From: an uncultured Bacteroidales bacterium | Lineage (GTDB): Bacteria > Bacteroidota > Bacteroidia > Bacteroidales > Paludibacteraceae | DNA length: 64,000 nucleotides | NCBI GenBank assembly: GCA_900320865.1 | Contig: ONTT01000004.1 | Span: 1-64,000, forward strand | Direction: 5' to 3' | Part shown: positions 3,669 through 56,844 of the stretch, piece by piece | Numbering within the stretch: position 1 is the stretch's first letter | Layout: every line of letters starts with the position of its first letter | Made by a program: the position numbers and the translations under genes | Notes under the pieces: generated by a model | What the model was told of the DNA's origin: nothing | The model's database searches: none | Seen by the model: only the letters and a program-made list of their open reading frames with translations

Positions 3669-4082
3669 TTATTTCCTTCCAAAGTCCGCCGGAATCTCAC
3701 CCCACGCTTTTGTGTCCCATTTATATATCGGCGTCGTCCATGTGTTGTCATGCAGCCACATCTCCGCCTTGCGAACCATATGAAACAGATCCTGATTCTT
3801 GGCGTTCCATTCAATCTTCGTCTTGCAGCGTTTCTGACGCAACCAAGCAAGCGCCGTGACGCTATCTGTATAAATCACCCAATTGAGGTTATACTTCTTG
3901 ATATAGGCAAGTCCCAGCACTAACGCCAGGAACTCGCCTATGTTATTCGTTCCTTCCGGGAATGGACCACGGTGAAAAACCTCCGTACCTGTATCGGCTA
4001 TCACTCCGCGGAACTCCATCACACCGGGGTTCCCGCTGCAGGCTGCATCAACGGCCAGGGCTGGTAAAATCGGTTTACTCAT
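3669..4082 (-). CDS. rnhA: Ribonuclease H (type HI family)
   Basis: Degrades the RNA strand of RNA-DNA hybrids. The 137-aa protein has all four carboxylates of the family: D12 (VDAACSGNPG), E50 (NNIGEF), D73 (YTDS) and D133 (WGEIPADF). It is the short form, without the N-terminal viroplasmin-like domain found in many Bacteroidota RNases H. The ATG at 4082 is chosen. A TTG at 4088 would add two residues. The start lies inside the end of the 1520-aa surface protein gene (stop 4077-4075), an 8-nt overlap, so it is translated from the same mRNA. Confidence 0.85.
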   Translation of the reverse strand: MSKPILPALAVDAACSGNPGVMEFRGVIADTGTEVFHRGPFPEGTNNIGEFLALVLGLAYIKKYNLNWVIYTDSVTALAWLRQKRCKTKIEWNAKNQDLFHMVRKAEMWLHDNTWTTPIYKWDTKAWGEIPADFGRK

Positions 4083-7000
4083 GAACAACCATTTTAGTTG
4101 TGATACGCTTGCCTTCGATCTCCGTCACTACGATATAAACGCCGCGACCAAAGGTACCCGAAACAGGACGACCCATCGTATCATAGATACCAATCACCTG
4201 CGAGGCCCCGCCTGTTGTCACAGTTCTACTCGGCGTCACTTCGTCGAAGGTCTGCGGGCAAGTGATCAAGGTCTTTCCGTCCGTGGTCGTCAAACGACAT
4301 TGATAGAGTATCGAGGTGCCACTCAGTCCATTCGGGTCATAGAGACTTTGTTGTGTCTCACCCGTCAGTTCCACTCCGTCCGCTAACCATTGATAGCCCA
4401 CATAGCGGTTTTCCTTGTTGCTCACGAAGAGTACATCGGTCCACTTGCTGTACATCTGACCCGAGATGGCGATAGTGAAAGAGACCGTGTTGGTGCTCTC
4501 GCAAAGCCCGCCTTCGCTTGTAGTGATAGTAGCAGAGTAATCTCCCGCTTCCATCGATGTCAACGAGAAGACGATGTCCGTGCCTTCTACCGCACCTGCA
4601 TAGTGCGCACCGTTGACCGCCACATCATATGTATCCGGTGCTCCGGCAGAAATCGTGAACGGGATACGAATCTCACTCGCACTATCGCACGTCAAAGCTA
4701 CTGTACCCACAGCAATACGCGGCGTAGCTTTGACGGAGAGATAGAGCGAGTCATGGAGTGTGCCGTATTCATACTCGCCCACTGCCGGCGTATGGATATC
4801 AAACCCATGGTCGGTATAACTCTCGCCTTCGCAGATCGTCTCCCGCCAGATATTGCATACAGGTGCGGGTGCAGCATCGAACGCATCAGACGGCACCGGC
4901 GTACAAGCCGTTGCATCTTCATACCTGGCGCCGATGACCAGTCCGGTAGCACCGATATTTTCCAATGTAAGCGGTACTACAGTCTGCATACCGGTGGCAG
5001 TAACGGTAGCATCCGCAGCTCCCGAGAGAACGATATTCTTGCCTGTTGCGTCGTACGGCGTTTTGATTGTCACAGTGAGGTTGTAATTTTTTGACCCGCA
5101 CACCAGTGCAGTAGGATCCACCGCTACCTCTACGGAAGTGATTTTCGGAGAGAAGGGCGCTACATCCAGTGTATGCGTACTATCGCAACTATTCGGTCCG
5201 TCAAAGGCTACATATAACGTATGCACCTTGCCGTCCGCCGGAATACCTTCAAAAGTAAGACCTGTCAGGTGCTGCTCGCCCTTGTCTTTCTCCGTGATAG
5301 ACTGACTCTTGGCGGTCATTCCGTCAACACGATAGGTCAAGTTTCCTTGCTGGTAGGTATAGTCCAAATCAAAAGTCAGTGTTGTCGTCTCATCGTCACA
5401 ACCGGGGGTAGAGTAACTGAAATTCCTGATATCCAAGCTTGGTGCTCCCGGAAGATCAAAAGCATCAGACGGGAATGTGCATGCAGGCGCATCTGCATAA
5501 GCAGCATTGATCACTTTGGTTCCGGCTGCATCGTGTAAGGTAATGGTGGCAGAAGCAGTGCTTCCGGATATAGTCAGTTCCTTACTTCGGGCGGTACCTT
5601 CGTCTTCGTAAGTCAAGGTGACTTTCTTCCCGTCCGCCGGATAAGGAGTGGTGACGGTTACGGTAGCGTTATAACTTGTGCCGTGACAAGCCAGTCCCTC
5701 CGGAACGCCACTCACAACCACTGACTGCAAAGCCGGAGTGAAAGGACAAGCCGGGAGGGTATACTCTTTCGTACAACTATTCGGTCCGTCGAACGTCACA
5801 TGCAATTTGCGTGTGTTGCCGTCCGCCGGGATGCCTTCAAAAGCAAGTTTTGTGAGATGTTGCTCGCTCTTAGAGGTGGTGATAGTGCGGGTTGAGTCTC
5901 CACTCAAACCTTCAATGCTATAATGCAAAGTACCTTGCTGATAGGTATAATCCAAATCAAAAGTCAGTGTGGTCGTCAAATCGGTACATCCCGGTGTGGA
6001 GAAAGTAAAGTTCTTGCTCAAGGCGCTCGGCGTGACAGGTGCTTCAGGCAGCGTATAGTCAGCAATCGGACATCCGTGCGTGCCGCTGAAGTTGACATTC
6101 AGTTTATGATTAGCCAATCCATCGGCGGCAACTCCCGGGATGACAAGCGTCACCTCTTTCTCGTCATCGCTATCGGCAGTGAACGAACCGGAAACAGACG
6201 TACCTCCATCCACGTTGGCTGTCAAAGTTCCGTTCTGATTGGTATAAGCGATGACGGCTGTGAGGGTGACAGTAGCGGCGTCGCATGCCACTTCTCCCCA
6301 AGTGACTGATTTGACGGAGATAGCAGGGACAGCCCGCGCATTATAGACATAGGTGGAAGGCGCATCGGTCTTCACCACGCCATCGTTAAAATAGACGGTG
6401 AGCGTATGATCGGCATTATCAACCGGCTGATCCTTCAGTACGCCTGTGTACGACGTAGCATTATCACCTATCTCGCTATGCGGAATCTTAGCCAGCAGGG
6501 TAGTACCCTCATAGATATAGAGGTCTCCGCGCGGATTGGTGAAGTTTACGGTGAAATCCACATCCGCTACCGTTGTCCCGCATCCTATGGGTTGACGCTG
6601 GGCGAAAGTAGCACTATGGATAGCACATGCTATATATTTCACAGGGAAAATCTCATATCCCGCGATATTGGAAGAACTGGCGGTGATTGCCTCGAAACGG
6701 ATATCATCGAGCGCAAAGTCGTTTCCGATATTTTTGTTACTGGTGTTCTTATTGATCACACGTAGTGCTACATTCGTACTGGAGGTGGTAGGAGTAGCGA
6801 TAGAGGACAATCCGTGCCAGCGGTTGTCTTTATAATTGCCGAGGTTGATCTCTCCGCCTAAGTTGCTCCATGTAGAACCTCCGTTGTAACTGATCTGGAA
6901 CTGCAGTCGCGCGCCGTTGTTCATCTGATAGAAAGCGTTGACATTCGCTACCCAGAAAGAGAAGAGGTAACTTATGCCTTTCTGCACTTTCAGTTTCGGA

Positions 7001-8637
7001 TTATTCGTGCCGGATTTGGCAATCCATGCCGCTTGATCCTCTACATTCGTAGTGACCTTGGAGTCAAAGAGTCCGAAATATTCTCCTTCGTGCGCTTTCA
7101 CGGAATTATAGGTGTGATAGAAAGTGTACGAATCTTTGACAATAGCGTAACCTCCGGATGCGTCCGTATGCGAGTCATAGTAATTATTGACCGCATCGCC
7201 CATCCCCCAGTAATCATACTTGCTCTCCAAGTTATCTTTTGTCTCAAAAGTACCATTGGTGATGAGGTTGCCTTCCGGCGTAGGAGGATCATTGGTGGCG
7301 AGGAAATAATAGGTTATAGTAGTAGCCTCTGAAGGTGCATCAAAAGTGATGTTTCTATTATCCGACGAAGTACCGATAATCGTATCATTATTGGCAGAGT
7401 TCGTCCACATGAAATAGGTGGAAGTCTGGTTATCCGGCGTCAGTTTGACATCCACTTCGGTGAATCGGGTGAGGTTCTGATCGCCCTCAGTCCCGGTAGT
7501 CGTGTGGGTCTCGGGATTCTTAACAGGCGGCTCTACCGTAACCTGACAGGATGCCTCGCATCCGCTGCCTTCAAGGAACTTGGCATAGAGCGTATAGGTC
7601 TTCTTGGACGAAGCATCCAAACCTTTCAGACGGAAGGTCTGCGGAGTCTCGATATCTGCATTCTCAATAATCAATGTATCCACATCCGGACACCATATTT
7701 GCAGTTTTCCGGCATTCTTCTTGTCGTCAAAAGCTACTACGCCGTTCACCGCACTGGTCCTGTCTGTTACATTAGCATCTGCCGCTACAGCAACAAACGA
7801 AGTGATCTTACATGCACCCGGTGCTCCTTCCGAGCAATCCTGATTAATCCGCACACGTATTAGCCTGCACATGGAAGGACGACTGGCCTGTAGGAAATAA
7901 TAGACATCGGAATTGACTCCGCCTAAAGTCACGGACAGGGCGATGTGCCCCCTGTCCTCAGTCGTGTACCATTCGCTTTGGTCCAGACGTGTCCAGGTGT
8001 TGTTCTCATATTTGAACCATGAGTGGCAATAGGTGTTTTCATAATCATAGTTTTTCGCTTGCAGCACATATTGTGTGCCAGCAGCTTCCTTACAAATCTG
8101 CTCGTCCTCATACTCCCATGTGGCCGGACTTCCCGAAGGAGCAGGGGCTACATATTCCCAGTTGGCACCGTTTTTGTCTCCGCCGTCGTTATAATAGAAA
8201 TTCTGGATGTAGTTCTGCTCGCGCATCTTCTTTTCGGAGCCCTCGTAATAATAGAACCATATATCTCCCGTTTGATGGGTTACTGTTCCCCAACTCGGGT
8301 TCGCGGAGGAGTGACGCGTCAGGATCACATACTCCCAGTCGCCGGCGGGTGCCTCTACGTACCAAACGGAACCCTGGTATTGCTTGACCTGTGTACTCCA
8401 TGCATTGGTAGAACCACGGAAAAAATACGCATAGTTATAATTATTCGTGGTAGCGTACCAGCCGTATTTCAAATCGCCTCCGGCATCTTTCACGCTTTGT
8501 GCCTCCATGTTGATATACAAGCGTTCGCCTTTGTCAAAGATGCGTGCCTGCATACTTGTAGCAGCCAGTAAGGCAACTAACAATATATATATTCGTGTTG
8601 TCTTTGTCATAAAGGCACGATTAACTTCGTTTTTCAT
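4075..8637 (-). CDS. Large T9SS-type surface protein with Ig-like repeats (cargo P1)
   Basis: A 1520-aa exported protein. The start at 8637 is preceded by an ideal Shine-Dalgarno (AAGGAGG, 7-nt spacing) that begins at the stop codon of the upstream barrel gene. The signal peptide core is at about residues 15-30. A jelly-roll, carbohydrate-binding-like domain lies at about 455-655 and ends in the FALDDIRF motif. Alternating Ig-like repeats of roughly 90-100 aa follow, with recurring motifs TTTLTFDLDYTYQQG, FEGIPADG and FDGPNSC. Next come a degenerate ICEGESY module, a pre-CTD module (YSKWTDVLF...YQWLADG) from about residue 1390, and a C-terminal sorting domain (MGRPV, GVYIV, KMVV). The likely location is the cell surface, via T9SS. 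The ligand is unknown. Confidence 0.8.
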   Translation of the reverse strand: MKNEVNRAFMTKTTRIYILLVALLAATSMQARIFDKGERLYINMEAQSVKDAGGDLKYGWYATTNNYNYAYFFRGSTNAWSTQVKQYQGSVWYVEAPAGDWEYVILTRHSSANPSWGTVTHQTGDIWFYYYEGSEKKMREQNYIQNFYYNDGGDKNGANWEYVAPAPSGSPATWEYEDEQICKEAAGTQYVLQAKNYDYENTYCHSWFKYENNTWTRLDQSEWYTTEDRGHIALSVTLGGVNSDVYYFLQASRPSMCRLIRVRINQDCSEGAPGACKITSFVAVAADANVTDRTSAVNGVVAFDDKKNAGKLQIWCPDVDTLIIENADIETPQTFRLKGLDASSKKTYTLYAKFLEGSGCEASCQVTVEPPVKNPETHTTTGTEGDQNLTRFTEVDVKLTPDNQTSTYFMWTNSANNDTIIGTSSDNRNITFDAPSEATTITYYFLATNDPPTPEGNLITNGTFETKDNLESKYDYWGMGDAVNNYYDSHTDASGGYAIVKDSYTFYHTYNSVKAHEGEYFGLFDSKVTTNVEDQAAWIAKSGTNNPKLKVQKGISYLFSFWVANVNAFYQMNNGARLQFQISYNGGSTWSNLGGEINLGNYKDNRWHGLSSIATPTTSSTNVALRVINKNTSNKNIGNDFALDDIRFEAITASSSNIAGYEIFPVKYIACAIHSATFAQRQPIGCGTTVADVDFTVNFTNPRGDLYIYEGTTLLAKIPHSEIGDNATSYTGVLKDQPVDNADHTLTVYFNDGVVKTDAPSTYVYNARAVPAISVKSVTWGEVACDAATVTLTAVIAYTNQNGTLTANVDGGTSVSGSFTADSDDEKEVTLVIPGVAADGLANHKLNVNFSGTHGCPIADYTLPEAPVTPSALSKNFTFSTPGCTDLTTTLTFDLDYTYQQGTLHYSIEGLSGDSTRTITTSKSEQHLTKLAFEGIPADGNTRKLHVTFDGPNSCTKEYTLPACPFTPALQSVVVSGVPEGLACHGTSYNATVTVTTPYPADGKKVTLTYEDEGTARSKELTISGSTASATITLHDAAGTKVINAAYADAPACTFPSDAFDLPGAPSLDIRNFSYSTPGCDDETTTLTFDLDYTYQQGNLTYRVDGMTAKSQSITEKDKGEQHLTGLTFEGIPADGKVHTLYVAFDGPNSCDSTHTLDVAPFSPKITSVEVAVDPTALVCGSKNYNLTVTIKTPYDATGKNIVLSGAADATVTATGMQTVVPLTLENIGATGLVIGARYEDATACTPVPSDAFDAAPAPVCNIWRETICEGESYTDHGFDIHTPAVGEYEYGTLHDSLYLSVKATPRIAVGTVALTCDSASEIRIPFTISAGAPDTYDVAVNGAHYAGAVEGTDIVFSLTSMEAGDYSATITTSEGGLCESTNTVSFTIAISGQMYSKWTDVLFVSNKENRYVGYQWLADGVELTGETQQSLYDPNGLSGTSILYQCRLTTTDGKTLITCPQTFDEVTPSRTVTTGGASQVIGIYDTMGRPVSGTFGRGVYIVVTEIEGKRITTKMVVHE

Positions 8638-8649
8638 AGTTTGTCCTCC

Positions 8650-10215
8650 TTATTCAATATCACTTTGTTTCTGAACTACTTTTACTTCTACACGGCGATC
8701 CAACGGCAACTCGTGGTTGACATTCTCCTCGTTCGGAACTAATGATCCATGCCCGATGACAATCACGCGGTCTTTATCCAGACCCTGACTAATCAGATAA
8801 TTGGCTACCGCCTTTGCACGGTTATAAGCCAAAATCTCATTGAAGGTCTTGTCACCTTCCTCCGATGCGTGACCGTCGATAGATACCTTCGCATCCGGTA
8901 CTTTATTCAGCACACCTACAATAGAGGACAAGTACGCCTTGGCTTTATTGGTCAACTGATGACTCGCCAAAGCAAAGTAAATCTTATTAAATTTCTCCAC
9001 TTCTTCGGCTGCTTTCTTGATATGCGCACGAGTGAGCGTATCTACCCGACTCACGATACTCGTATCATTGCGGGCAATTAACTGAACCGTCGTATCCGTA
9101 CGAGTGAAATAGTCGAAGTAATCGATGGTTTTATGCTTCGGCGCAGCAATATGATGCCAGTGAATACCTACCTTCACGCCTACTTCCCAAGGATGCGACT
9201 TACCCGCCATATCCAGCGAGTACGCACCCGTGTATTCTTCCATAAAAGTAAAGGTGTCGTCCTTCCAACCCAACGGATGCTTCGTCGATTTGTTTACATC
9301 ATTCAACGCGATATTAAAATGACCGCCTAAGAACAAATCAATTTGATCCGTCAACGGAAGTAAGGCACCCAGGTCCATAAATAAAGCCACTTGCGGACGA
9401 ACATCCAACTTCCCCTGATAAGCATAGTTCTTCACACCAAACTCATGCATGTCGTTCAACCATAAGTTCCATGCGGGGTAGTATCCCTCATGCGCCACTT
9501 CGCCTTGCAGCACTTTGTATTTCTTCATTACAGAGAACGCCGGAGCAATACCTAAATCAGCAAAGATACGCGCTTTCCAGTCCTCCTTTTTGTATTGGAA
9601 CTGCAGCGAGATAGGAACACCTATATTATGGATCGTCTGGCGCTCATTCCAACGATTGACGGTCGAATGATGGTCATAATGCTGCTCCAGGTCCGTATCC
9701 GTTTGGTCCAACCATGAATAGGCTCCGCCCAAACGAGCATGTGTCGTGTAATTCGTGAACCATAATCCGGCTCCCACACCCCAGTTCTCATGGAAGAAAT
9801 AGGCGTATTGTATCTGCAGCAAACCACTGAATGAACCAATCGTCCTGTTCTCTGTACCGGCTAAAGAATAACCTAAGGAACCGTATCCAAGCCCCACATA
9901 GGCTTCGATATAATGCCCTTTGCGACTGGTCGAGTCCGCATAGGTCACTTCTTCACGCTGCTTCGCTACGCTGTCCTGCGAAGCGATCAACAGAGTCAAG
10001 GTGTCCGTGTAGTGATAGATAGTGGTCGTCTGAACACGAGTCAAACTGTCCGGAGTCTTCTGTAACTCCGGCGTATCCTCCATCTCAAAACTACGTTCGT
10101 GCATCTCCGTCATTCCCGGAGATATCGCGGAACGGAAAATCCGGGTAGTGTCGCTTTGGGCACTCAGCGCCAACGGAATACTCAGCGCTGCGAGAATAAG
10201 CCATTTGTGTTTCAT
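8650..10215 (-). CDS. Outer-membrane beta-barrel protein with OmpA domain (OmpA1)
   Basis: A 521-aa protein with a signal peptide (MKHKWLILAALSIPLALSAQ). A beta-barrel with alternating aromatic strands occupies about residues 100-370. After a linker, an OmpA/MotB peptidoglycan-binding domain spans about 405-512, with IDGHASEEGD, YNRAKAVANYL and LDRRVEVKV. It would anchor the outer membrane to the cell wall. It sits directly upstream of surface protein P1, whose Shine-Dalgarno overlaps this gene's stop, and 30 nt downstream of a tRNA-Arg gene. No promoter box was found between the tRNA and this gene. An accessory role for the surface protein is inferred from the repeated pairing in the window. 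Confidence 0.82.
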   Translation of the reverse strand: MKHKWLILAALSIPLALSAQSDTTRIFRSAISPGMTEMHERSFEMEDTPELQKTPDSLTRVQTTTIYHYTDTLTLLIASQDSVAKQREEVTYADSTSRKGHYIEAYVGLGYGSLGYSLAGTENRTIGSFSGLLQIQYAYFFHENWGVGAGLWFTNYTTHARLGGAYSWLDQTDTDLEQHYDHHSTVNRWNERQTIHNIGVPISLQFQYKKEDWKARIFADLGIAPAFSVMKKYKVLQGEVAHEGYYPAWNLWLNDMHEFGVKNYAYQGKLDVRPQVALFMDLGALLPLTDQIDLFLGGHFNIALNDVNKSTKHPLGWKDDTFTFMEEYTGAYSLDMAGKSHPWEVGVKVGIHWHHIAAPKHKTIDYFDYFTRTDTTVQLIARNDTSIVSRVDTLTRAHIKKAAEEVEKFNKIYFALASHQLTNKAKAYLSSIVGVLNKVPDAKVSIDGHASEEGDKTFNEILAYNRAKAVANYLISQGLDKDRVIVIGHGSLVPNEENVNHELPLDRRVEVKVVQKQSDIE

Positions 10216-10245
10216 AGTATTGTGTTTTTCAATCGTTTATTGTTG

Positions 10246-10317: not shown

Positions 10318-10363
10318 TTTGCTAAATCGTGCCCTTGTGGCTAAGAACTATCAGGCCGTCGGG

Positions 10364-11074: not shown

Positions 11075-11128
11075 TACCAATTACCAATCACCAATTACCA
11101 ATTACCAATTACCAATCACCAATTACCA
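11073..11128. repeat. Tandem heptamer array, 8 units
   Basis: Eight uninterrupted copies of the heptamer ATTACCA (two copies read ATCACCA). The order is such that a 28-bp block of four units occurs twice exactly. The array supplies the final codons and the TGA stop of rfbD, and the sequence just before the DUF2461 start, so changes in unit number would move the stop or the spacing. Confidence 0.9.
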
Positions 11129-11982: not shown

Positions 11983-12002
11983 CCTGTAATTAATATATTC
12001 AT
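11963..12002. repeat. Tandem 20-bp duplication over the rfbD start codon
   Basis: Two exact adjacent 20-bp copies (11963-11982 and 11983-12002). Each carries the rfbD start codon and its first codons. The upstream copy encodes MNILITG followed by TGA, and this TGA shares bases with the true ATG (ATGA). Confidence 0.92.
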
Positions 12003-12087
12003 TCTTTATATGGGTGATTACTGAGTGAGTAGGACTCATTACCTGGGTATATCGTATCCTGCACGTACCTATAATATACAAAGTATA

Positions 12088-12742: not shown

Positions 12743-13654
12743 TTAGAAGACAAAAGGACTACACCGGCAAGGAAAAGCACGGCGACGGGAAGCACGATCG
12801 TAAGGAGAAATAGCATAGGATATCTTAAGTCCTACATCGAAGAGCGCACATTGACTCACCAACTGCCGGAGGAAGCGGTTGGCGGACATAACCGGCGTCA
12901 GAACTCGTTGCAGCGGAAAACCGTCACGAGTGTCGGTTAGCATGATCAGGCACTCGGCATTGCTATGCTCCGGCTTATAGTTGGTTAAACTATAGTCAAA
13001 ATAAGCCCCGACAACGAGATACGAACGGTAAGTATCCGCTCGAGGATTCAATGGAATCATATAACTCAATTCCGTAGCCAACCACCACTGCACCTTTGGT
13101 AATTGCAACTTACCGCTATTGTACATTGCAAAATCCCGCGAAGCCGCCAAAGGAAACGACTCATAGACGCGGTTGTCATAATCCGGATAATAGACCGAGA
13201 GAGCTGCATTTTCCACGTTCTGCTTCCACCAAGTATTCATCGGGAAGACCACCTTTGCGCCAATGAGGAACGAGAAGTTTTTAACGGAAAGCGCCAACTG
13301 CAGCGGGACTCCTACAGACCATGTTGTATAGCGTTCGGTAAGGCGACCGATGGTATAATCAATCTCCATCCGTTGGTTTTCAACATCGATGGTAGCATAA
13401 TGATCTACATAATTCGTTTTGGCAAATCCCGGTTGATGGCAGTCCAGCGTAAGTCCGGTTCGGAAACCTATCACATAGGGCGAGAGATAGTTATAATAGA
13501 CCTGTGCTCCGCCGTGAAATCCGACCGTATTGTTCACATATACCGTCTTCGAAGACCAACCGGCTATTCCGCCATGTATACCCACCTCGAACACGTGTTC
13601 GGCATGAAGCACGAGCGGAAAAAACAATACTATGTAAAGGAGGACACGTCTCAT
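12743..13654 (-). CDS. Outer-membrane beta-barrel protein, coupled to cargo P2
   Basis: A 303-aa protein with a signal peptide (MRRVLLYIVLFFPLVLHA). The remainder reads as a porin-like beta-barrel of amphipathic strands (FEVGIHGGIAGW, VPLQLALSV, YLVVGAYFDYSL), followed by a short Arg/Cys-rich tail ending in Phe. There is no OmpA domain. Its ATG at 13654 overlaps the TGA of the 981-aa surface protein (ATGA), so translation is coupled. ATG 13678 upstream is in frame but would precede the signal peptide. It is similar in size and placement to the barrel at 25063-25992. It does not obviously match PorP/SprF. A role in export or anchoring of P2 is inferred. Confidence 0.75.
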   Translation of the reverse strand: MRRVLLYIVLFFPLVLHAEHVFEVGIHGGIAGWSSKTVYVNNTVGFHGGAQVYYNYLSPYVIGFRTGLTLDCHQPGFAKTNYVDHYATIDVENQRMEIDYTIGRLTERYTTWSVGVPLQLALSVKNFSFLIGAKVVFPMNTWWKQNVENAALSVYYPDYDNRVYESFPLAASRDFAMYNSGKLQLPKVQWWLATELSYMIPLNPRADTYRSYLVVGAYFDYSLTNYKPEHSNAECLIMLTDTRDGFPLQRVLTPVMSANRFLRQLVSQCALFDVGLKISYAISPYDRASRRRAFPCRCSPFVF

Positions 13655-16596
13655 GGTATCAGTTTCTTCTCTGTCCATTTTTTCTCCCCCTGTTCATAGC
13701 GATAGAGGTACACCCCGTGGGATACTTGGTTCTCTCGAACAAGCATACCCCAGCTATTGAAGATAGTAACCCGAACAGGTAACTCTTCCTGCGCTTCGCC
13801 GATTTCCAGAATATTTGACCATATCGCTTGCTCATTGTCTAAGACAATACGCAACTGGAATCGCCCACACAACTCATTCTGCTCAGAGTAGTCATCGTCG
13901 GTGGCACCCGGTATCGGTGCGTCGTTTTTGTACCATTGGTAAGCACACGCGATACGTCCCGGAAGCAAACGGGCTAATGACACATTATCCAACAGCAAGA
14001 CCCAGTTGTACTTGTTGACAATAAGCGGCCATAACTTCTCACAATGGAATGTATCGAGATGGAGAATATAACTGGTATCCGTACAATCGGTCCATTTCGG
14101 ATGAGGTATATCCAGCACTTGAATCTCGGCGTGTTCAAAGACAAAAGTCTTATTTCTTAGCGTCCAGGTAAAGGGTAACAACGTATCGCAGACTGTCGTG
14201 TCGGCGGTAATGGTCACCATCTCGGGACAGCAGACCTGGGTATTAAGAGTCAAGACACGGAGCAGGCTGTCACAACCCAGTTGATCCTTATACAGAATCT
14301 CATAGGTAGCAGGTTCTGTAAACAGCGTATCCCGCCAGCGGTACGGCATCAACGTGTCACAAACCACCGTATCCACCGTAATAGTTACCGCCTTGGGACA
14401 GCAAATCTGGGTGTTAAGAGTCAAGACACAGAGCAGACTATCACAGCCCCGTTGATCCTTATACAGAATCTCATAGGTAGCAGGTTCTGTAAACAGCGTA
14501 TCCCGCCAGCGATAGGGCATCAATGTGTCGCAAACCACCGTATCCACCGTAACAGTTACCACCTCCGGGCAAGGCGGTTCCGGCGGCTCACATTTGTTCA
14601 CTTTTAGTAGGAAAGGCTCACTCACGGCTCGGCAGTTCTCGCTCTCGATATTTCCATCGCCGGAGACGGCTACTTTATACCAACCCGAGTCGGCTTTCTG
14701 GATGGTGCTGAAAGTGAGGATTTCTCCGTTGAAACCGGACATTTCTGTCCATGTGATGCTGTCCGTCGAGTGCCACCATTTATAAGCTAAAGGTTCAGCA
14801 AATGTACCATCGTTGGTAAAGTTGGCGGTGAGGGTTGTTGGTTTGTTTGCGCACACTTCCGCCTCGCCTTCTATCGTCACAGGCGGTGCGCAGAGGTGAA
14901 TCTCGATGTCGTCCAATACAAAGTCATTACCGCTTCCGTTTATGGGTACATTATTATAAATGGTGAGTTTCACACGAGAAATGTTGTCCGGTACGGTGAA
15001 GTTCATACCGATGAGCCGCCAGTGTGCTGAATACTGCCAAGACGAATTATCTCCGATAAAAGCGGAGTCAAATGGTATATCACCTGTGTCATAGGTAGCC
15101 AGTTCGGTCCCCGAAGAGGGATCGGTCAGCACAAACTTCATCCGCGGATAGATATCATCCCTGTTAGGGTTCATGTAATGTCCCCAAGTCATGACATTCG
15201 CCACATAGGCAGAGAATGTGAGACGCGAACCGGGACAGAGACCTGCTATCGTGGTGGTATAGAAAGGCGCATTGTCCCCTCGTCCGTCTATCTGCAAGAG
15301 ATAGCCTTTTGTCTTGTCATTCGGATAAGTGTGGTCATCCATGATATGCCACTGAATCCCATTTTTATATCCTTGTTTGGTTACCAAGAACTTTCCGCTA
15401 CTCATCCCGCTTGTCCGGCTCAAACAGGGAGAATAACCGGAGGACATGCCAAGTACAGCCGCCCGCGCTTCGTTGGCATCAGAAATCATTTCCGGCTCGG
15501 ACGGGTCATTACCGCCGAAATCCTCCCGGAAGAGGAGTATTCCGTCGATACACAACTCCGGCTCAGGCGGCTCACATTCGTTGACCCGCAAACGGAACGG
15601 TTCGCTCACGGCTCGACAGTTCACGCGCTCGATATTTCCATCGCCGGAGACGGCTACTTTATACCAACCCGAGTCGGATTTTTGAACGGCATCGATGAGC
15701 AGATTTTCTCCGTTGAAACCGGACATTTCTGTCCATGTGACGCTATCTAAAGAGTGCCACCATTTATAAGCTAAAGGTTCAGCAAATGTACCGTCGTTGG
15801 TAAAGTTAGCGGTGAGGGTTGTTGGTTTGTTTGCGCACACTTCCGCCTCGCCTTCTATCGTCACAGGCGGTGCGCACAGGTGAATCTCGATGTCGTCCAA
15901 CGCAAAGTCATTACCGCTACCATTCTGTACTACGTCGTTATAGATGAACATTTGAATGGACTCGACTCCATCAGGAACGGTGAAATTCATACCGAATAGT
16001 TGCCACTCAGCAGATAATTGGTTGTCCCGCGCATATTTCCAAGTCTCCGGCGTACCGTACCGCCAGTCGGGTTGGATATCACCTGTCGATTTCTCTGCCA
16101 ATATTGCACCCGTCTCGGGATCCTTGAGCACAAATTTCATCCGCGGATAGACGTACCTACTGCCGAAATAATCGAGTTGTCCGGCGTAATGGACGTTCAC
16201 TATATAGGCGCTGAAGGTGAGTTGTGTTCCGGCGCAAAGACCTTCTATCGTCTTGCTATAAAATGGTTTGGCGCCGCCTACTCCATCCACCTCCAAAAGA
16301 TAGCCTCGTGTCTTGTCTCCGAAATAAGTATGGTCATCCTGCCAATGCCATTGAATACCGTTGTGCCAGCCCTCTTTGCGCAGCGTATAATTGCCGCTAC
16401 CCAAGCTATTACCGGAGTTGTGATAACTCGGGTCCATGCCTTGGACACTGGCCATGCTGATGTCCGGATCGGACGGGTCGTTACCGCCGAAATCCTCACG
16501 GAAGAGGAGCGTTCCGTCAATACAGAGTTCTTCCTCTTGCGCAACCATCGGCAGCACAAGCGACAAACAGAAAAATATGCTCCAGAAACGTTTCAT
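13651..16596 (-). CDS. T9SS-type surface protein with duplicated jelly-roll/Ig modules (cargo P2)
   Basis: A 981-aa exported protein with signal peptide MKRFWSIFFCLSLVLPMVAQ. Two copies of a roughly 330-aa unit follow (about 22-345 and 350-675). Each begins CIDG(T/I)LLFREDFGGNDPS, contains a jelly-roll ending NDFALDDIEIHLC or NDFVLDDIEIHLC, and then an Ig-like domain (YKWWHS...SGWYKVAVSGDGN). Next come 57-aa repeats around CDTLMPYRWRDTLFTEP...GCDSLL, a pre-CTD module with AYQWYKNDAPIPGA, and a sorting domain (NSWGMLV, GVYLYRY, KKLIP). It is predicted to be surface-exposed via T9SS and carbohydrate- or protein-binding. The next gene is a coupled barrel. Confidence 0.8.
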   Translation of the reverse strand: MKRFWSIFFCLSLVLPMVAQEEELCIDGTLLFREDFGGNDPSDPDISMASVQGMDPSYHNSGNSLGSGNYTLRKEGWHNGIQWHWQDDHTYFGDKTRGYLLEVDGVGGAKPFYSKTIEGLCAGTQLTFSAYIVNVHYAGQLDYFGSRYVYPRMKFVLKDPETGAILAEKSTGDIQPDWRYGTPETWKYARDNQLSAEWQLFGMNFTVPDGVESIQMFIYNDVVQNGSGNDFALDDIEIHLCAPPVTIEGEAEVCANKPTTLTANFTNDGTFAEPLAYKWWHSLDSVTWTEMSGFNGENLLIDAVQKSDSGWYKVAVSGDGNIERVNCRAVSEPFRLRVNECEPPEPELCIDGILLFREDFGGNDPSEPEMISDANEARAAVLGMSSGYSPCLSRTSGMSSGKFLVTKQGYKNGIQWHIMDDHTYPNDKTKGYLLQIDGRGDNAPFYTTTIAGLCPGSRLTFSAYVANVMTWGHYMNPNRDDIYPRMKFVLTDPSSGTELATYDTGDIPFDSAFIGDNSSWQYSAHWRLIGMNFTVPDNISRVKLTIYNNVPINGSGNDFVLDDIEIHLCAPPVTIEGEAEVCANKPTTLTANFTNDGTFAEPLAYKWWHSTDSITWTEMSGFNGEILTFSTIQKADSGWYKVAVSGDGNIESENCRAVSEPFLLKVNKCEPPEPPCPEVVTVTVDTVVCDTLMPYRWRDTLFTEPATYEILYKDQRGCDSLLCVLTLNTQICCPKAVTITVDTVVCDTLMPYRWRDTLFTEPATYEILYKDQLGCDSLLRVLTLNTQVCCPEMVTITADTTVCDTLLPFTWTLRNKTFVFEHAEIQVLDIPHPKWTDCTDTSYILHLDTFHCEKLWPLIVNKYNWVLLLDNVSLARLLPGRIACAYQWYKNDAPIPGATDDDYSEQNELCGRFQLRIVLDNEQAIWSNILEIGEAQEELPVRVTIFNSWGMLVRENQVSHGVYLYRYEQGEKKWTEKKLIP
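14281..14560. repeat. 171-bp internal repeats in cargo P2
   Basis: Two near-identical 171-bp units (the second starts at 14452) encode a 57-aa module with VVCDTLMPYRWRDTLF and GCDSLL. A third, diverged unit lies downstream in the gene at about 14160-14250. Confidence 0.85.
14768..14934. repeat. Conserved ~167-bp repeat, copy A (copy B at 15752-15918)
   Basis: About 167 bp recurs with only a handful of mismatches 984 bp away, inside the duplicated units of cargo P2. It covers the end of the jelly-roll and the start of the Ig-like domain. The near-identity contrasts with the divergence of the rest of the unit and suggests recent duplication or gene conversion. Confidence 0.85.
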
Positions 16597-16988: not shown

Positions 16989-19900
16989 ATGTTTAAACAT
17001 ATTATTTCATATATGAGAGGTGCGAGAGTTTTTGCTCTTGCTGTGTTGAGCGTTTTCCTTTTTTGTTCGTACGCGTACGCGCAGAATGCTGACGCGAGTA
17101 TATCAGTGCCGTACAATTTCAGTTTTGAAGAGGATGAGGCTGTTGAGTTGTCGAAGTGGGTGCTGAATCCCGGCTTGGGAGCTGATACGCTTTCAGAGAA
17201 ATGGATAGTGGGGAAAGCAGCACGGAGCGATGGAGAAAGATCACTTTATATATCAAACAATGGCGAAGACAATCAGTTTGGGGTCGGCCCTCTTACTCAA
17301 TATGCCTATCGGGACATTTTGCTTCCCAAAGGAGTATATGAATGTTCTTTCGATTGGTGTTGCGTTGGTGCACAAGGTGCTTCTCTGTATGCCGGCATAT
17401 ATGATAAAGAAACCATAAATTCGCTTACCGTTGGTTCGTCCCGCGCAGAAATTCCTTCTACGGTTCTAACCGGTTGTTCATTAACGAACCTGTATAGCGC
17501 AAGTCGTTGGCAACATGCTGATTTTCGTGTGTCAAGTAACGGGACACGAGTGCTCCGCATGTATTTCATCTGGGTTAATCGAAATACAGAAACGGACTTA
17601 CCAATGCCTATCGGCGCATGTATTGATAATATTCAAATTACATTGGCCAATTGCAAGAAGCCCACAAACGTTCAGTCTCAGATTATCGGAGATAGCATGC
17701 TAGTCACTTGGGAAGGAACTAGCGAACAATATGCGGTCGAATATCGCCGCCATGGACGCAATAAATGGAATGTAACATCCGGTATCTATGACGAAAAGCA
17801 TATTTTAGAAGGATTGGACGAAGGCTCTTATGACATACGAGTATGCGGAATTTGCAATAATGTAGATACGAGTGCATATACCTATCTCAATTCTGTTCTT
17901 GTTTATTATCCTGATCGGCATTGTATCGATTATGTACATTTAGAAAACAATCCGGCGATCGAAGTAATGTATGGGACGTATACTACTCCGGATCAGAATG
18001 AGGGCATTGTGGATTATGGCCCTGACAGCAAATACTCACGCCACACCATTAACGTCAATCCGGATGTTTACGATCCTCGTACAGATAATAAATTACCCAC
18101 GATAGCCCCAAATGAACTGGCATCTATTCGATTAGGGAACTGGGACGTCGGCTCTGAAGCGGAAAGTATGATTTTTTCATACACAGTAGATGAATCGTCC
18201 GCCATACTATTGATGCACTATGCTATTGTCATGGAGGATCCGGAGCACGATACGGAAAGTCAGCCCCGTTTCCGATTAGAAATTATCGATGCTTGGGGAG
18301 ATTTAATAAGCCCAACTTGCGGAGATGTTGATTTCATCGCAGACATGACGCGTTTAGATAACGGATGGCATGTTACAAGCCGAGGCGTGACATGGAAAGA
18401 GTGGACAACAATAGGCCTAAACCTCTCTGATAGAATGGGCGAAACAATTCGTATTCGCCTAACCACATATGATTGCAATTGGGGAGGACACTATGGTTAT
18501 GCCTATTTCTCGCTTGACTGTGTGGCTGCTCGCATTGTAGGAACAAGTTGTGGTGACGATGCACAAATGTCGATTGCTGCTCCGGACGGATTTGATTATG
18601 AGTGGTTTGACAAGTACGACAACCCGGTACCAGCAGAAAAATTATCTCCCGATGGTCAAACCTTGTTAGTGGATGCAACAGACACTACTACTTATCGCTG
18701 TCACCTTACTTATCTCGAGGAGCAGAGTTGTGGTTTTGACCTCTATTCCTCCGCACGTCCTCGTTTCCCAATTGCCGATTTCGAATGGCAATATGCGCCG
18801 TCTAATTGTCAGAACCGCGTTAAGTTTACTAATAAGAGTCACATTATGACAAAGTACAATAATGTGATTGAATACCATTATGATCAACCCTGCGATGAGT
18901 ATGAATGGGATTTTGGAAATGGTCAAGTAGGAGCAGAGAGGAATCCGGTGGTAACGTTCCCTCAAAAAGGAGGAACATACAATGTCACATTATATTCGTC
19001 AATTGCAGAGGGGAAATGCATGGATGATACAGTAATTACCATTACTCTTCCTGAGATTGGGGATAAATTCCTGCAAGTTGATTCTACTATTTGCGACGGA
19101 ACATACATTGTTTTCGGACCACAATATTTAGCTGCAGCTGGTGAATATGAAAACACTTGGAAAACAGCTACCGGTTGCGACTCAACGGTTCAGATGAAAC
19201 TTAGTGTCAGTCCCGTTACCAACGAGTATGTCGGAGATACAACGATCTGCGCAGAAGTTCCGCTCACTATGGATGGCCAGACCTATAAATCACATGAATC
19301 CGGTAAGTTCTACCGTTTCTATACCAATCAATATGGTTGCGACTCCACACTCTGGATGAATGTAACCGTTCTCGATTCGATTTTACCGATTGTGACGGTT
19401 CGTGAGATGAGCGATGCCCCGAATTCGGGAGCAATCTTCATCGACGGAGAAGGATTTGATTACTATACCATAAACGGCGGAGAGCCTCAGACCTCGGACT
19501 CCATCACCGGATTGAACGGAGGTTTCTTTGAATTGGAGTTCTTCAATGACTTCGGTTGCTCTGTCGTTCGCGAAGCCGCTGTCAGCGTCTGTATGCCCGG
19601 TTGGGTCTATCAGCGCTGGGGAGATGTGCTCTCGCTCAAGAATGCAGAAGCGTTGGACACCGATTCGGCCACTCATGTCTTTACCGATTTCCAATGGTAT
19701 AAGAACAACGAAGCTATTCCGGGCGCCAACCTCTCCTATTTATATGTAGAAGAAGGTCTGGATCCGTCGGCCAGTTATCATTTGGAAATGACACGCGTAA
19801 GCAACGGCGAGAAAGTGGCCACCTGTCCCTTCCGCCCTACTGCCGTAGAGGACCAGAAAGTGGTATACGTCTATCCGTCGCCTGTTCAGGTAGGCGGAAC

Positions 19901-20087
19901 ACTTACTGTCAAAGTATCGGAGGCCGCTTCGTTAACCATCGTCAATATGTTCGGAGACATCGCGCTCACACAAGCGCTCTCCGAAGGAACAAATAGTATC
20001 ACCATGGCGGTACCTGCGGGTATCTATGTGGTACAAGTGCAAATAGGCAGCGAGACACGTGTCTGCCGAATCAGTGTAATCGAATAA
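16989..20087 (+). CDS. T9SS-type surface protein with PKD and CDS-type repeats (cargo P3)
   Basis: A 1032-aa exported protein with a signal peptide to about residue 31 (LFCSYAYAQ). An N-terminal jelly-roll-like domain (FSFEEDEAVELSKWVLNPG...LPKGVYECSFDW) is followed by a FnIII-like segment (VTWEGTSEQYAVEYR), a central domain of unknown type, and a PKD domain (YEWDFGNGQVGAERNP...KGGTYNVTLY, about 636-675). Then come ICDGTYIVFG and ICAEVPLTM modules ending GCDST, the pre-CTD module (WVYQRWGDVLSL...FQWYKNNEAIPGA, from about 868), and a sorting domain (YPSPVQVGG...GIYVVQV...CRISVIE). Cargo P4 downstream is a paralogue in the N-terminal half. It is followed by an OmpA barrel gene whose Shine-Dalgarno starts at this stop codon. 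Confidence 0.8.
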   Translation: MFKHIISYMRGARVFALAVLSVFLFCSYAYAQNADASISVPYNFSFEEDEAVELSKWVLNPGLGADTLSEKWIVGKAARSDGERSLYISNNGEDNQFGVGPLTQYAYRDILLPKGVYECSFDWCCVGAQGASLYAGIYDKETINSLTVGSSRAEIPSTVLTGCSLTNLYSASRWQHADFRVSSNGTRVLRMYFIWVNRNTETDLPMPIGACIDNIQITLANCKKPTNVQSQIIGDSMLVTWEGTSEQYAVEYRRHGRNKWNVTSGIYDEKHILEGLDEGSYDIRVCGICNNVDTSAYTYLNSVLVYYPDRHCIDYVHLENNPAIEVMYGTYTTPDQNEGIVDYGPDSKYSRHTINVNPDVYDPRTDNKLPTIAPNELASIRLGNWDVGSEAESMIFSYTVDESSAILLMHYAIVMEDPEHDTESQPRFRLEIIDAWGDLISPTCGDVDFIADMTRLDNGWHVTSRGVTWKEWTTIGLNLSDRMGETIRIRLTTYDCNWGGHYGYAYFSLDCVAARIVGTSCGDDAQMSIAAPDGFDYEWFDKYDNPVPAEKLSPDGQTLLVDATDTTTYRCHLTYLEEQSCGFDLYSSARPRFPIADFEWQYAPSNCQNRVKFTNKSHIMTKYNNVIEYHYDQPCDEYEWDFGNGQVGAERNPVVTFPQKGGTYNVTLYSSIAEGKCMDDTVITITLPEIGDKFLQVDSTICDGTYIVFGPQYLAAAGEYENTWKTATGCDSTVQMKLSVSPVTNEYVGDTTICAEVPLTMDGQTYKSHESGKFYRFYTNQYGCDSTLWMNVTVLDSILPIVTVREMSDAPNSGAIFIDGEGFDYYTINGGEPQTSDSITGLNGGFFELEFFNDFGCSVVREAAVSVCMPGWVYQRWGDVLSLKNAEALDTDSATHVFTDFQWYKNNEAIPGANLSYLYVEEGLDPSASYHLEMTRVSNGEKVATCPFRPTAVEDQKVVYVYPSPVQVGGTLTVKVSEAASLTIVNMFGDIALTQALSEGTNSITMAVPAGIYVVQVQIGSETRVCRISVIE

Positions 20088-20100
20088 GGAGGGCCGCAAG

Positions 20101-21894: not shown

Positions 21895-21898
21895 AAAA

Positions 21899-50806: not shown

Positions 50807-50811
50807 TAGCG

Positions 50812-51630
50812 ATGAAAGGTATTAGTTTATATAGCGTTGTACCCGTTCGTGCTGAATCACGAGAAAGCGCAGAGCAAAACACGCAAATGCTATTCGGCGA
50901 GACCTGTACCATTCTAGAGCAAAAACCTCGATGGAATCGCATTAAACTCGATAATGATGGACAAGAGGGCTGGATAGACGCCAAGATGCTTGCTCCAATG
51001 ACGGAAGAGGAATATACTTCATATAGCAAAGCCTACGTTTCTGCAGCTATGGTATCTTTTCCTATGGTATTCGCTGTTAGCGAAAATAACCAACAAACGA
51101 TACCCCTTACAGCCGGTACACGCCTAACGAACTATCAGGACGGTCGATTTGAAATCCTTGGTGTTCCGTTTCGTATAGACGCATCGATGGTGATTACGCA
51201 ACCCATCGAACTGAACGAACAAAATCTTTTACAAACAGTACGTTTCTTCCTGAATATCCCATATCTATGGGGCGGAAAAAACGCGATGGGAATGGACTGT
51301 TCCGGTTTTACGCAAATCATCATGAGCCTTTTCGGCAAGCGTTTATTGCGCAATGCGAGTGAACAAGCCACCCAGGGAACAGAACGCGCTAATATCACTC
51401 AAGTGAAAGCCGGGGACCTGGTCTTTTTCAACCATGAAGGATTGAACGATGGAGCCGCTAATCCCCCAAAAATAACGCACGTAGGAATCGCTATTGACTC
51501 CACGCGCGTCATTCATTGTTCCGGCCGTGTTAAGGTAGAAAAACTCGATTCCACCGGTATTTATAATATAGAGCAAGGTGGCTATTCACACCACCTTGCA
51601 TCTATCATCGATTCAGAATCTCTTCTTTAA
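50812..51630 (+). CDS. SH3 / NlpC-P60 family cysteine peptidase
   Basis: A 272-aa putative cell-wall amidopeptidase. An SH3-like domain (about 1-70: VRAESRESAEQNTQMLFGE, GWIDAKML) precedes a C40 peptidase domain with the catalytic Cys in GMDCSGFTQ, His in KITHVGIA, and a third polar residue in IHCSGRVK. No signal peptide is evident, as in other Bacteroidota members. ATG 50812 is chosen. A TTG 12 nt upstream overlaps nadB. The 3' end overlaps the end of the convergent OmpA3 gene by 26 nt. Confidence 0.87.
   Translation: MKGISLYSVVPVRAESRESAEQNTQMLFGETCTILEQKPRWNRIKLDNDGQEGWIDAKMLAPMTEEEYTSYSKAYVSAAMVSFPMVFAVSENNQQTIPLTAGTRLTNYQDGRFEILGVPFRIDASMVITQPIELNEQNLLQTVRFFLNIPYLWGGKNAMGMDCSGFTQIIMSLFGKRLLRNASEQATQGTERANITQVKAGDLVFFNHEGLNDGAANPPKITHVGIAIDSTRVIHCSGRVKVEKLDSTGIYNIEQGGYSHHLASIIDSESLL
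51573..51599. terminator. Hairpin at the convergent end of nlpC and OmpA3
   Basis: A perfect 9-bp stem (GCAAGGTGG/CCACCTTGC) with a 9-nt loop lies in the end of the peptidase gene and just past the OmpA3 stop. No T-run is present on either strand, so it may be a 3'-end stabiliser rather than a classical terminator. Confidence 0.4.
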
Positions 51631-53443: not shown

Positions 53444-53457
53444 ATCCGTTCCTCCTA

Positions 53458-56400: not shown

Positions 56401-56844
56401 AGCCATACTCCAACACTTGAGGATTGTACCATCGCATACACCTGCGATAGCGCCGATTCGACGTTTGTTCTTTGCAATCAAAGAGCCACCGCTGATACCC
56501 AAATTCTCTACAACGCCCGTTTTAGCGATGAAGCCGAATAAACCGACACCATCCGTCGCATCAAAAGTTCTAAAACCTTTGATTGTGTGTCCTTGACCAT
56601 CGAACTTACCCTTGAATGGTTTATCTTTGGTTCCAATTGGAATCCATTTCACCCCATCCAAATCAATATCCGCAGTAAGCGTGATGTTTTGTTCATCCGC
56701 TCCCGCTGTCGCGGCATACTGGTTGGCAATCGCTACCAACTCATCAGCAGACGAAACGTTCACAGCTATAGCAGCTATAGCTTTGAACGGGCACGCGCAC
56801 GCGAACATTAAAAATAAAAAAAAGGAGAGTACTTCTTTTTTCAT
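53458..56844 (-). CDS. T9SS-type surface protein with GLUG-type repeats (cargo P6)
   Basis: A 1128-aa exported protein with a signal peptide (FFLFLMFACACPFKAIA). The N-terminal third (about 30-290) is a right-handed, pectate-lyase-like helix of GLUG-type turns (GQGHTIKGF, GVGLFGFIAKTGVVENLGI, NVVGGLVGELSG, DTIGAIVGLNSGKL). Several Ig-like domains follow with paired motifs VYYQWLLNGDTIPGQEG and YNYQWYFKSGD, and TFTRQTRDS or TFTRQVRNS. Then come an IVCANDLPFTM module, the pre-CTD module (YSKYDRVVFVDNNP...YQWYKNGLLQEGE), and a sorting domain (YPVPVGVGEPLSI...GIYFVQITTEDGRVETHKLIVK). It begins 27 nt after the tRNA-Leu 3' end with no promoter between. OmpA3 follows in the same unit. Confidence 0.82.
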   Translation of the reverse strand: MKKEVLSFFLFLMFACACPFKAIAAIAVNVSSADELVAIANQYAATAGADEQNITLTADIDLDGVKWIPIGTKDKPFKGKFDGQGHTIKGFRTFDATDGVGLFGFIAKTGVVENLGISGGSLIAKNKRRIGAIAGVCDGTILKCWSMAFIPVAGNVVGGLVGELSGNGNMEDCYQSGLILNAADTIGAIVGLNSGKLTRVFNVGYAKNGNAIVGFDNHGTYIDVYFDRKLYYQKSGIDDDAIIGYDVTEDMFSLFKNIPTTWSVAENRYPVLKQFASTNAAKLSAAPMFIEAGDIEPVNHANDLTNNFTVSVEGGITWTCQDESDKQWIQISGKDVKVVRPCTETDVLVDSKLDTEVRVVYMRPRRVEDLLAGTFISYDDETGETGKIMGYCFESYWELSTQSRVEYASRGWLGDGGDYHYKVEFYSIDDENNDTTLISTLLSDASTSEYRSWVENFIIPTDKAGHFLIRSWVHDNGCVTDWIENKPGFEFVVFGEFVPGEIVTKIDTILLDEIPTFVNAQSKTESYGGGGPVYYQWLLNGDTIPGQEGLTLVNYAITQPGVYTFTRQTRDSICYVPQSSVEYLGKYIVYAFDKFDPGEISNHEDTTFCSVEDAQAYVVQATSASGGVSNKGYNYQWYFKSGDVLTKINGATNMTLSLNGLTLEAGHDYTFVREAEDNTRFTTLTRSRYEKKIRIMAVLTPGAIENATWETFCFEADDNKLTPHTIIIHETTPATCSGGVVYEWIMNPGNKVVGQNAELEYTFMMGEIKLGQTYTFTRQVRNSNPDCAWVPSTGAVSQVFGKKSYHEVTTIVCANDLPFTMTLEDGKTHVFYSATDVWTVTDESGICPDITDYKIELATMPNFQLDEYVSWCQTTGTMSVYYVEDPGAPSNVFYIRYSEDLAKYMGAKDTTGVITTPGTILFDNMPNLGTGDLYLNVQIGYQAESASGVCYSTSHLMRLYPSLGGYVYSKYDRVVFVDNNPNNGALPDATEKLEFVSYQWYKNGLLQEGETGQYYHEGGAILNGVFYCMLKDTKGNSYRTCDVILPAESTSNAPQSTTVYPVPVGVGEPLSIEAFGSARIVSLAGERISEIGTIDAKAIVNAPRVPGIYFVQITTEDGRVETHKLIVK

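What the first reader, a model, noticed from the sequence alone, without database searches (positions are those of the whole stretch)
4075..56844. Repeated two-part modules: T9SS-type surface cargo plus outer-membrane barrel
At four separate loci in one window a large exported protein with a C-terminal sorting domain is adjacent to a barrel protein: OmpA1-P1 (4075-10215), P2-barrel (12743-16596), P3-OmpA2-P4-barrel (16989-25992) and P6-OmpA3 (51605-56844). The barrels fall into two classes: simple barrels of about 300 aa, and barrels with OmpA (plus regulatory-like or LysM) domains. SprB/SprF-type cargo-barrel pairs are known in Flavobacterium, but these barrels do not look like PorP/SprF by eye. 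They may form a dedicated surface-anchoring or export system. The sequence shows pairing and domains; function is inferred.
Basis: partly seen in the sequence, partly recalled or inferred. Interest (0 to 1): 0.78.

Follow-up and report, generated by a model that had tools for sequence, protein, structure and literature searches.

The report
Paired surface adhesins and membrane anchors
A group of uncultured gut bacteria carries many gene pairs, each an adhesin-like surface protein beside a small outer-membrane protein that looks like its private anchor, and that anchor ends either in a cell-wall-binding type of domain or in a two-cysteine tail like those that fasten proteins to the gliding track of related bacteria.

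Summary
The four cargo-barrel loci are real. The five barrels form one small-barrel family; 0 of 53 aligned members (mostly B2 orthologues) match PorP/SprF, PorV or DUF6089 models. The cargos share an Ig-like ("QWYKNG") domain followed by a whole or halved type A-like sorting domain. The pairing recurs: 8 of 10 barrels in this genome, 54 of 55 simple barrels in 49 named loci, 27 of 30 loci outside the genus. Orphan cargos also exist.

The new point is how the barrels end on the periplasmic side. One class carries an OmpA domain. The other ends in Cys-x(1,2)-Cys: 30 of 35 in the genus, 54 of 54 in the named loci, 0 of 20 outside the genus. SprF and PorG use such tails to bond GldK, the gliding-track protein (PMC12635249). 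PorG-type genes of this genus also have twin cysteines (16 of 16); 12 of 13 from other families do not. In one orthologous module the OmpA domain is exchanged for a CMC tail.

Best reading: a non-PorP family of T9SS cargo carriers, static (OmpA) or track-linked (twin-Cys). The disulfide and any movement are inferred, untested.

The parts
8650..10215 (-). OmpA1: family barrel + OmpA domain (motif GHAS); first gene of OmpA1>P1
   Evidence: PF13568 31.5 bits, PF00691 59.4 bits; A3
4075..8637 (-). P1: 1520-aa cargo, Ig-like domain + halved sorting domain
13651..16596 (-). P2: 981-aa cargo, Ig-like domain + halved sorting domain; overlaps B2 by 28 bp
   Evidence: AlphaFold model of C-terminal 127 aa, pLDDT 91.9, pTM 0.61
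12743..13678 (-). B2: simple barrel, ten strands in the model, tail ...FPCRCSPFVF (Cys304, Cys306)
   Evidence: AlphaFold pLDDT 89.2, pTM 0.79; both Cys invariant in 7 orthologues
16989..20087 (+). P3: 1032-aa cargo, Ig-like domain + full sorting domain; first gene of a quartet
   Evidence: TIGR04183 30.8 bits
20101..21894 (+). OmpA2: family barrel + unassigned middle + OmpA domain (motif GHTD)
   Evidence: PF00691 83.7 bits
21899..25066 (+). P4: 1055-aa cargo with a PKD match, Ig-like domain + halved sorting domain
   Evidence: PF00801 24.2 bits
25063..25992 (+). B4: simple barrel, tail ...TPSQCMCLRDYY (twin Cys)
26068..34926 (+). P5: 2952-aa FN3/MAM protein with full sorting domain, 75 bp after B4; not hit by the QWYKNG profile; may or may not use B4
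   Evidence: fn3, MAM; TIGR04183 35.3 bits
53458..56844 (-). P6: 1128-aa cargo, Ig-like domain + full sorting domain
   Evidence: TIGR04183 27.1 bits
51605..53461 (-). OmpA3: family barrel + OmpA domain (motif GHAC) + LysM-like end
   Evidence: PF00691 52.6 bits, NF008399 E 1.8e-5

Best explanation
Each module is a T9SS surface adhesin plus its own outer-membrane carrier. The cargo's C-terminal Ig-like domain and whole or halved type A-like sorting domain take it through the T9SS translocon and are handed to the neighbouring small barrel, which holds the cargo at the surface as SprF holds SprB. The carrier's periplasmic end decides where it stays: an OmpA domain ties it to peptidoglycan (static), a Cys-x(1,2)-Cys tail bonds the conserved cysteine of GldK/PorK in the T9SS/gliding track (track-linked, possibly moving). 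Shown by sequence: pairing, one barrel family, two kinds of ending, their exchange at one orthologous module, conservation of the tail cysteines and of the GldK cysteine. Inferred: export by T9SS, physical cargo-carrier binding, the disulfide to GldK, peptidoglycan binding, movement.
For: Pairing: own genome 8 of 10 barrels, named loci 54 of 55 (the exception, L144, has no cargo in 814 bp upstream), outside the genus 27 of 30. Matched divergence of cargo ends and barrels: Mantel rho 0.53 on 48 pairs; 0 of 1000 within-genome partner shuffles reach it (max 0.35). PorU, PorV, PorP and GldK are encoded, each over its model's cut-off; SprA/Sov, PorL, PorM and PorN were not searched by model. PorG-type (PF19573) genes: genus 16 of 16 CxxC; other families 12 of 13 without a twin motif. 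GldK Cys329 aligns with PorK Cys356; Cys in 30 of 30 aligned rows, own genome twice, L255 not resolved. Anchor exchange: cargo 57-63% identical over about 1130 aa, barrel proteins 45-47%, ending OmpA or CMC. PMC12635249 (sections read): SprF and PorG C-tail cysteines bond GldK Cys343.
Against: No experiment and no complex model. Five genus simple barrels lack twin Cys, and none of the 20 simple barrels outside the genus has it, so it is not part of the ancestral pairing. 36 of the 50 OmpA rows do not show the GHTD motif (30 have S or C at the position of the Asp that binds peptidoglycan in PorE, placed by motif spacing; 6 not matched by the pattern; at least five rows are second copies of a gene). 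Type A sorting domains are known to use PorV (PMC12618676, introduction), so P3 and P6 might not need a private carrier for export. Orphan cargos exist, one of them in this genome (C25:27385). The Mantel result would also follow from duplication of whole modules without contact.
Confidence: 0.6

Rival explanations
1. The carrier is a shuttle and surface anchor, but the twin cysteines bond something other than GldK (another copy of the carrier, a PorE-like lipoprotein) or only each other.
For: No partner was tested. The barrel profile does not align convincingly with the genome's PorG-type protein or PorP (single sequences, a weak test), so descent of the motif from a known GldK partner is not shown.
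Against: Same motif and place as SprF and PorG (PMC12635249); the genus's own PorG-type protein has the same kind of tail, CxxC; the GldK cysteine is kept.
Confidence: 0.2
2. The cargos leave by the ordinary PorV/PorU route and are fixed to lipopolysaccharide; the barrel is a linked porin or OmpA protein with another job.
For: P3, P6 and P5 have type A sorting domains over the cut-off; PorU and PorV are encoded; other sorting-domain proteins of this genome have no family barrel beside them: C64 and C27 (over cut-off), C25:6175 and C35:99206 (under it).
Against: Pairing across many genera, overlapping genes (28 or 4 bp in 46 of 53 listed pairs), halved or replaced sorting domains in paired cargos, matched divergence.
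Confidence: 0.15
3. The modules are a variable set of surface proteins whose linkage reflects repeated duplication and shared operons only.
For: 4-13 family barrels in 23 of 25 genus genomes; recurring quartets.
Against: Conserved twin Cys in tails whose other residues vary, and exchange of OmpA for CMC with cargo and barrel kept, point to selected attachment.
Confidence: 0.05

Closest known systems
SprB-SprF (Flavobacterium johnsoniae; type B CTD with PorP/SprF carrier on the gliding track)
   Same: Large adhesin gene with its barrel gene directly downstream; periplasmic Cys-x-Cys tail on the barrel; GldK cysteine present.
   Different: Barrel family (0 of 53 hit TIGR03519); ten strands in the model; cargo has Ig-like domain + type A-like end, no type B hit; movement untested.
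PG1035-PorP-PorE (Porphyromonas gingivalis) and Fjoh_3952-3951-3950
   Same: Cargo, barrel and an OmpA-type part proposed to work as one anchoring unit (PMC9143113 abstract; PMC12618676 discussion).
   Different: Here barrel and OmpA domain are fused in one protein; the barrel is not PorP.
PorG (T9SS)
   Same: Small outer-membrane barrel with cysteine tail bonded to GldK in F. johnsoniae (PMC12635249).
   Different: No convincing sequence relation to the genome's PF19573 protein (hhalign 7.7%); that gene is single here. That PF19573/DUF6089 is the PorG family is recalled, not from a call.
PorV (type A shuttle)
   Same: Receives type A sorting domains from the translocon (PMC12618676, introduction).
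   Different: PorV/PorQ models hit none of 53 members; PorV is encoded separately beside PorU.

Membership tests
PorP/SprF carriers | Match to TIGR03519 over its cut-off | tested here: not met
   0 of 53 A5 members at E<=0.1; the genome's single PorP scores 202.6 bits
PorP/SprF carriers | Gene directly downstream of a T9SS cargo gene | tested here: met
   54 of 55 simple barrels in named loci; P2-B2, P4-B4, P3-OmpA2, P6-OmpA3 in the window; P1 is downstream of OmpA1 instead
PorP/SprF carriers | Partner has a type B CTD (TIGR04131) | tested here: not met
   NCBIfam scan of the 5 cargos at E<=0.1 gave only TIGR04183; that TIGR04131 is in this release is assumed
SprF-like track attachment | Twin Cys in periplasmic C-tail | tested here: met
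   30 of 35 in genus, 54 of 54 in named loci; not the OmpA class; periplasmic side inferred from the model
SprF-like track attachment | Disulfide bond to GldK Cys and movement | not testable with these tools
   Only the GldK cysteine was checked: conserved in 30 of 30 rows
PorG | Match to DUF6089 (PF19573) or profile similarity | tested here: not met
   No PF19573 hit in 53 members; hhalign 7.7% with own PF19573 protein; family identity of PF19573 recalled
PorV/PorQ | Match to NF033709/NF033710 | tested here: not met
   0 of 53
T9SS type A cargo | TIGR04183 over cut-off | tested here: inconclusive
   P3, P6 and P5 yes; P1, P2 and P4 under cut-off or no hit, halved domain
OmpA C-terminal domain (peptidoglycan binding) | PF00691 match and the Asp/Asn/Arg set named for PorE (PMC7192894) | tested here: inconclusive
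   PF00691 over cut-off in all three; Asp kept in OmpA2, Ser in OmpA1, Cys in OmpA3; Asn and Arg kept in all three
OMP_b-brl_2 (PF13568) | Match over cut-off 27 bits | tested here: inconclusive
   OmpA1 31.5 bits; 5 of 53 A5 members at E<=0.1

The most novel reading that the evidence does not exclude
A genus of gut Paludibacteraceae has independently built a second gliding-type adhesin system. It kept only the one core PorP/SprF, expanded an unrelated small-barrel carrier family, and gave its members (and PorG) twin-cysteine tails, so that adhesins are carried along a GldJ/K/N track, while OmpA-ended carriers of the same family hold static adhesins. Quartets (cargo, OmpA carrier, cargo, twin-Cys carrier) would place one fixed and one moving adhesin from one operon.
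Probability: 0.3. Interest if true: 0.9.

Novelty: new variant of a known kind. Interest (0 to 1): 0.78.

Why it matters
How T9SS cargos are told where to stay on the surface is open; the carriers described in the papers I read are PorV and PorP/SprF. A further carrier family with two interchangeable periplasmic endings would turn 'fixed or moving' into a part that can be swapped and tested. It would also extend the 2025 disulfide-to-track mechanism from Flavobacterium and Porphyromonas to uncultured gut bacteria for which my one search (listing only) showed no report of gliding, and it would give a meaning to many unannotated gene pairs in Bacteroidales.

Tried and rejected
PorP/SprF membership: rejected. 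PorG origin of the barrels: not supported (weak test). Displacement of a GldJ-side SprF by a family barrel: considered because in 11 other-family genomes GldJ lies beside a PorP/SprF hit (coordinates), while in the genus a CxxC family barrel lies near GldJ; but it is two genes away across divergent folP/cdaA, was present in 8 of 11 genus loci seen, and the two GldJ-side PorPs labelled (L177, L181) have no twin Cys, so I do not claim displacement. (In one search my 'GldJ' reference was by mistake an antisense ORF, so GldJ-like genes are labelled GldK there; their identity rests.) GldJ as a marker of gliding: not usable, since 41 of 41 genomes have some match, 8 over the cut-off, none of them of this genus. 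Viral contigs: 76 pattern matches, none a relative. Foldseek on the cargo end: no match at E<=0.001; RgpB CTD 5ag8 only at rank 18, E 0.11. Foldseek on the barrel: TM-scores over the query are low for every listed hit (0.32 at best), so the fold class is not settled. Rows dropped before the 30-of-35 count: L002, L013, L066, L098 (cut), L110_6270 (fragment), L071, L072, L074 (outside the genus). PorG-type rows left out: L247 (no ORF resolved), G017 (no locus given). Fisher tests are not used: rows are related, and one was labelled with another count than it used.

Literature: six full-text searches in the PMC library; their listings showed nothing on these pairs. Subscription papers and preprints are mostly not held. 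Read: PMC12635249 abstract, sections 6 and 7, section 10 part 1, section 13 part 1, and passages; PMC12618676 abstract, sections 4 and 12; PMC9143113 abstract; PMC7192894 passages. Others: search listings only.
Full report
What is there. The window lies in a 1.97-Mb, 82.65%-complete genome bin. It holds four same-strand cargo-barrel loci at the stated places, among housekeeping-type genes and three tRNA genes. The relatives that carry names are records labelled Bacteroidales or Paludibacteraceae; those whose titles name a source come from ruminant gut.

One barrel family. The five barrels align over their barrel part. A profile from them finds five more in the same genome at E<=1: C52, C41 and C33, each beside a cargo with the Ig-like domain (the C33 domain was seen by eye, the searches did not report it), and C12 and C29, which have no such neighbour. 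Pfam barely knows the family (5 of 53 members hit OMP_b-brl_2); NCBIfam's PorP/SprF and PorV/PorQ models hit none (the 53 are mostly B2 orthologues), nor the own C12, C41, C29 and C33 barrels. AlphaFold gives B2 a signal helix, ten strands and a loose tail after the last strand (pLDDT 89.2, pTM 0.79), so the tail should be periplasmic (inference from an even strand number). Best PDB matches are OpcA (E 1.5e-6), a Legionella porin, OmpA and Ail; FadL stands at rank 9, OmpX at 12; TM-scores over the query are low for all listed.

The cargos. They share a C-terminal Ig-like domain (QWYKNG motif) followed by a type A sorting domain that is whole in P3 and P6 and lacks its first strands in P1, P2 and P4. 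The model of P2's end is an Ig-like fold plus three strands (pLDDT 91.9, pTM 0.61). The C52 cargo has only a short tail in place of the sorting domain and still has a carrier. PKD matches in P4, an IgGFc-binding match in the C41 cargo and FN3/MAM in P5 suggest adhesins (inference).

Is the pairing general? Of 24 other genomes of the genus, 23 carry the barrel family and 23 the cargo domain; G014 has neither. Of 140 listed cargo-domain hits there, 48 have a barrel within 1 kb downstream, 2 more within 2.5 kb, 30 a barrel upstream within 12 kb on the same strand, 60 none; chance would give about 0.2 of the first kind (the hit lists were cut by the tool at 150 and 149 rows). Twenty loci of the last kind were fetched: 7 have an adjacent barrel after all, 1 has one with a gene between, 12 have none adjacent, some at contig ends. 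Orphan cargos, often in tandem, are therefore real or at least common in these fragmented assemblies; the own genome has one (C25:27385). Recurrent orders are cargo>OmpA-carrier>cargo>simple carrier (window, L106, L111, L114, L115), simple>OmpA>cargo>cargo (L092, L112, L113) and cargo>simple and OmpA carriers (L105, L109, L122). A scan of genome contigs with B2 orthologues gave 49 named loci. Of 55 distinct simple barrels there, 54 follow a cargo end directly (53, the L155 one); in 46 of the 53 listed pairs the genes overlap by 28 or 4 bp. The exception, L144, has no cargo in the 814 bp upstream, but a 1158-aa ORF runs off the contig downstream. In a sample of 295 genomes of the order, 40 have the barrel at E<=1e-8, two of them of this genus, and in 27 of the 30 loci outside the genus that were looked at it follows a cargo of this kind (domain threshold E 0.05; not L204, L209, L074). 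Cargo ends and barrels diverge together (48 pairs, 19 genomes, rho 0.53; within-genome shuffles mean 0.15, maximum 0.35, 0 of 1000), which shows that modules keep together but not that the proteins touch.

The twin-cysteine tails. Complete simple barrels of the genus end in C-x(1,2)-C in 30 of 35 cases; the exceptions are L028, L047, L069, L092 and L113. The tail around the cysteines varies while they do not. Background: 12 of 404 other ORFs in the last 45 residues, 7 of 404 in the last 30. Outside the genus: 0 of 20. None of 50 OmpA-class rows has the motif at its end; CDDC (linker) and CLLC (residue 11) occur in two proteins. PMC12635249 (sections read) shows that the C-tail cysteines of SprF and PorG bond GldK Cys343 and tie these barrels to the track. 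In this genome the PF19573 protein, which I take for PorG (that DUF6089 is the PorG family is recalled), ends ECRICNY. Such genes have CxxC in 16 of 16 resolved genus cases; of 13 from other families 12 have no twin motif and one tail cysteine, as that paper reports for P. gingivalis PorG, and one has CKC. GldK Cys329 aligns with PorK Cys356, and all 30 aligned GldK rows keep it, own genome counted twice. So the genus changed PorG and its cargo carriers in the same direction.

The exchange. In own C52 (L033), L103 and L106 a cargo precedes an OmpA-ended carrier; in L119, L133, L135 and L150 the carrier ends in QRRRCMC[AS]MMK. The L119 cargo is 63% and 57% identical to those of L106 and L033 over about 1130 aa, and the carriers are 45-47% identical. 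On a quick tree of 107 barrels the L119 barrel lies inside an OmpA clade (SH-aLRT 98), and endings change at least 6 times within the genus. The two endings thus replace each other under the same barrel and cargo.

How it would work. The nearest logic is Flavobacterium's: SprF-type carriers move adhesins on the track, while another stands beside a PorE-like protein and looks static (PMC12618676, discussion). Here both would be built on one unrelated barrel, with the PorE-like part fused. The genus has exactly one PorP/SprF over the cut-off in 25 of 25 genomes, against 0-13 matches in 16 genomes of other families, as if this family took over. Weak points: 30 OmpA-class rows have Ser or Cys where PorE's peptidoglycan-binding Asp would stand, so static anchoring by all of them is unsure; type A ends normally use PorV; no contact, bond or motion was tested; SprA/Sov and the motor genes were not searched by model; and the GldJ-like protein of this genome scores under that model's cut-off (333 against 458 bits).

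Verdict.

Noticed in passing
L032 4905-7730, L033 4041-7481 and 12231-13940, L034 14438-15907, L028 13258-14535, L047 3611-4249: Several secreted-looking proteins of this genome end in a short tail like [IV]LR[DN]GQL[IV]I[LI]RxGxxYxxxGxxI instead of a full T9SS sorting domain; one paired cargo (C52) has it. Perhaps a minimal sorting signal.
   Followed up: no
window 51605-53461 and loci: 15 of 50 OmpA-class rows have Cys (GHAC) at the position of the peptidoglycan-binding Asp, 12 have Ser (GHAS); OmpA3 is GHAC, OmpA1 GHAS, OmpA2 GHTD.
   Followed up: partly
L046 6010-7146; L183-L188, L191: A lone CxxC-tailed family barrel without a cargo neighbour sits in a conserved metG-barrel-cdaA-folP-gldJ neighbourhood in 8 of 11 genus loci seen (gene names from similarity to own ORFs and by eye); it could serve the orphan cargos.
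   Followed up: partly
L069, L092, L113 (first barrel of barrel>OmpA operons): A clade of simple barrels without the twin cysteines (...GKSYVYDYYK... in L069) next to a CxxC relative on the tree, so probably a loss.
   Followed up: no
L034 7633-14427 (own C41 cargo): Paired cargo of 2265 aa with an IgGFc-binding-protein domain (PF17517, E 1.7e-46).
   Followed up: no
window 12088-12636, 11116-12081, 10364-11080: rmlC, rmlD and DUF2461 genes lie between the P2-B2 and OmpA1-P1 pairs; ORFs of matching size and order recur before the OmpA1-type carrier in L103, L106 and L119.
   Followed up: partly
L025 5729-10394: PorU and PorV genes are adjacent in this genome.
   Followed up: no
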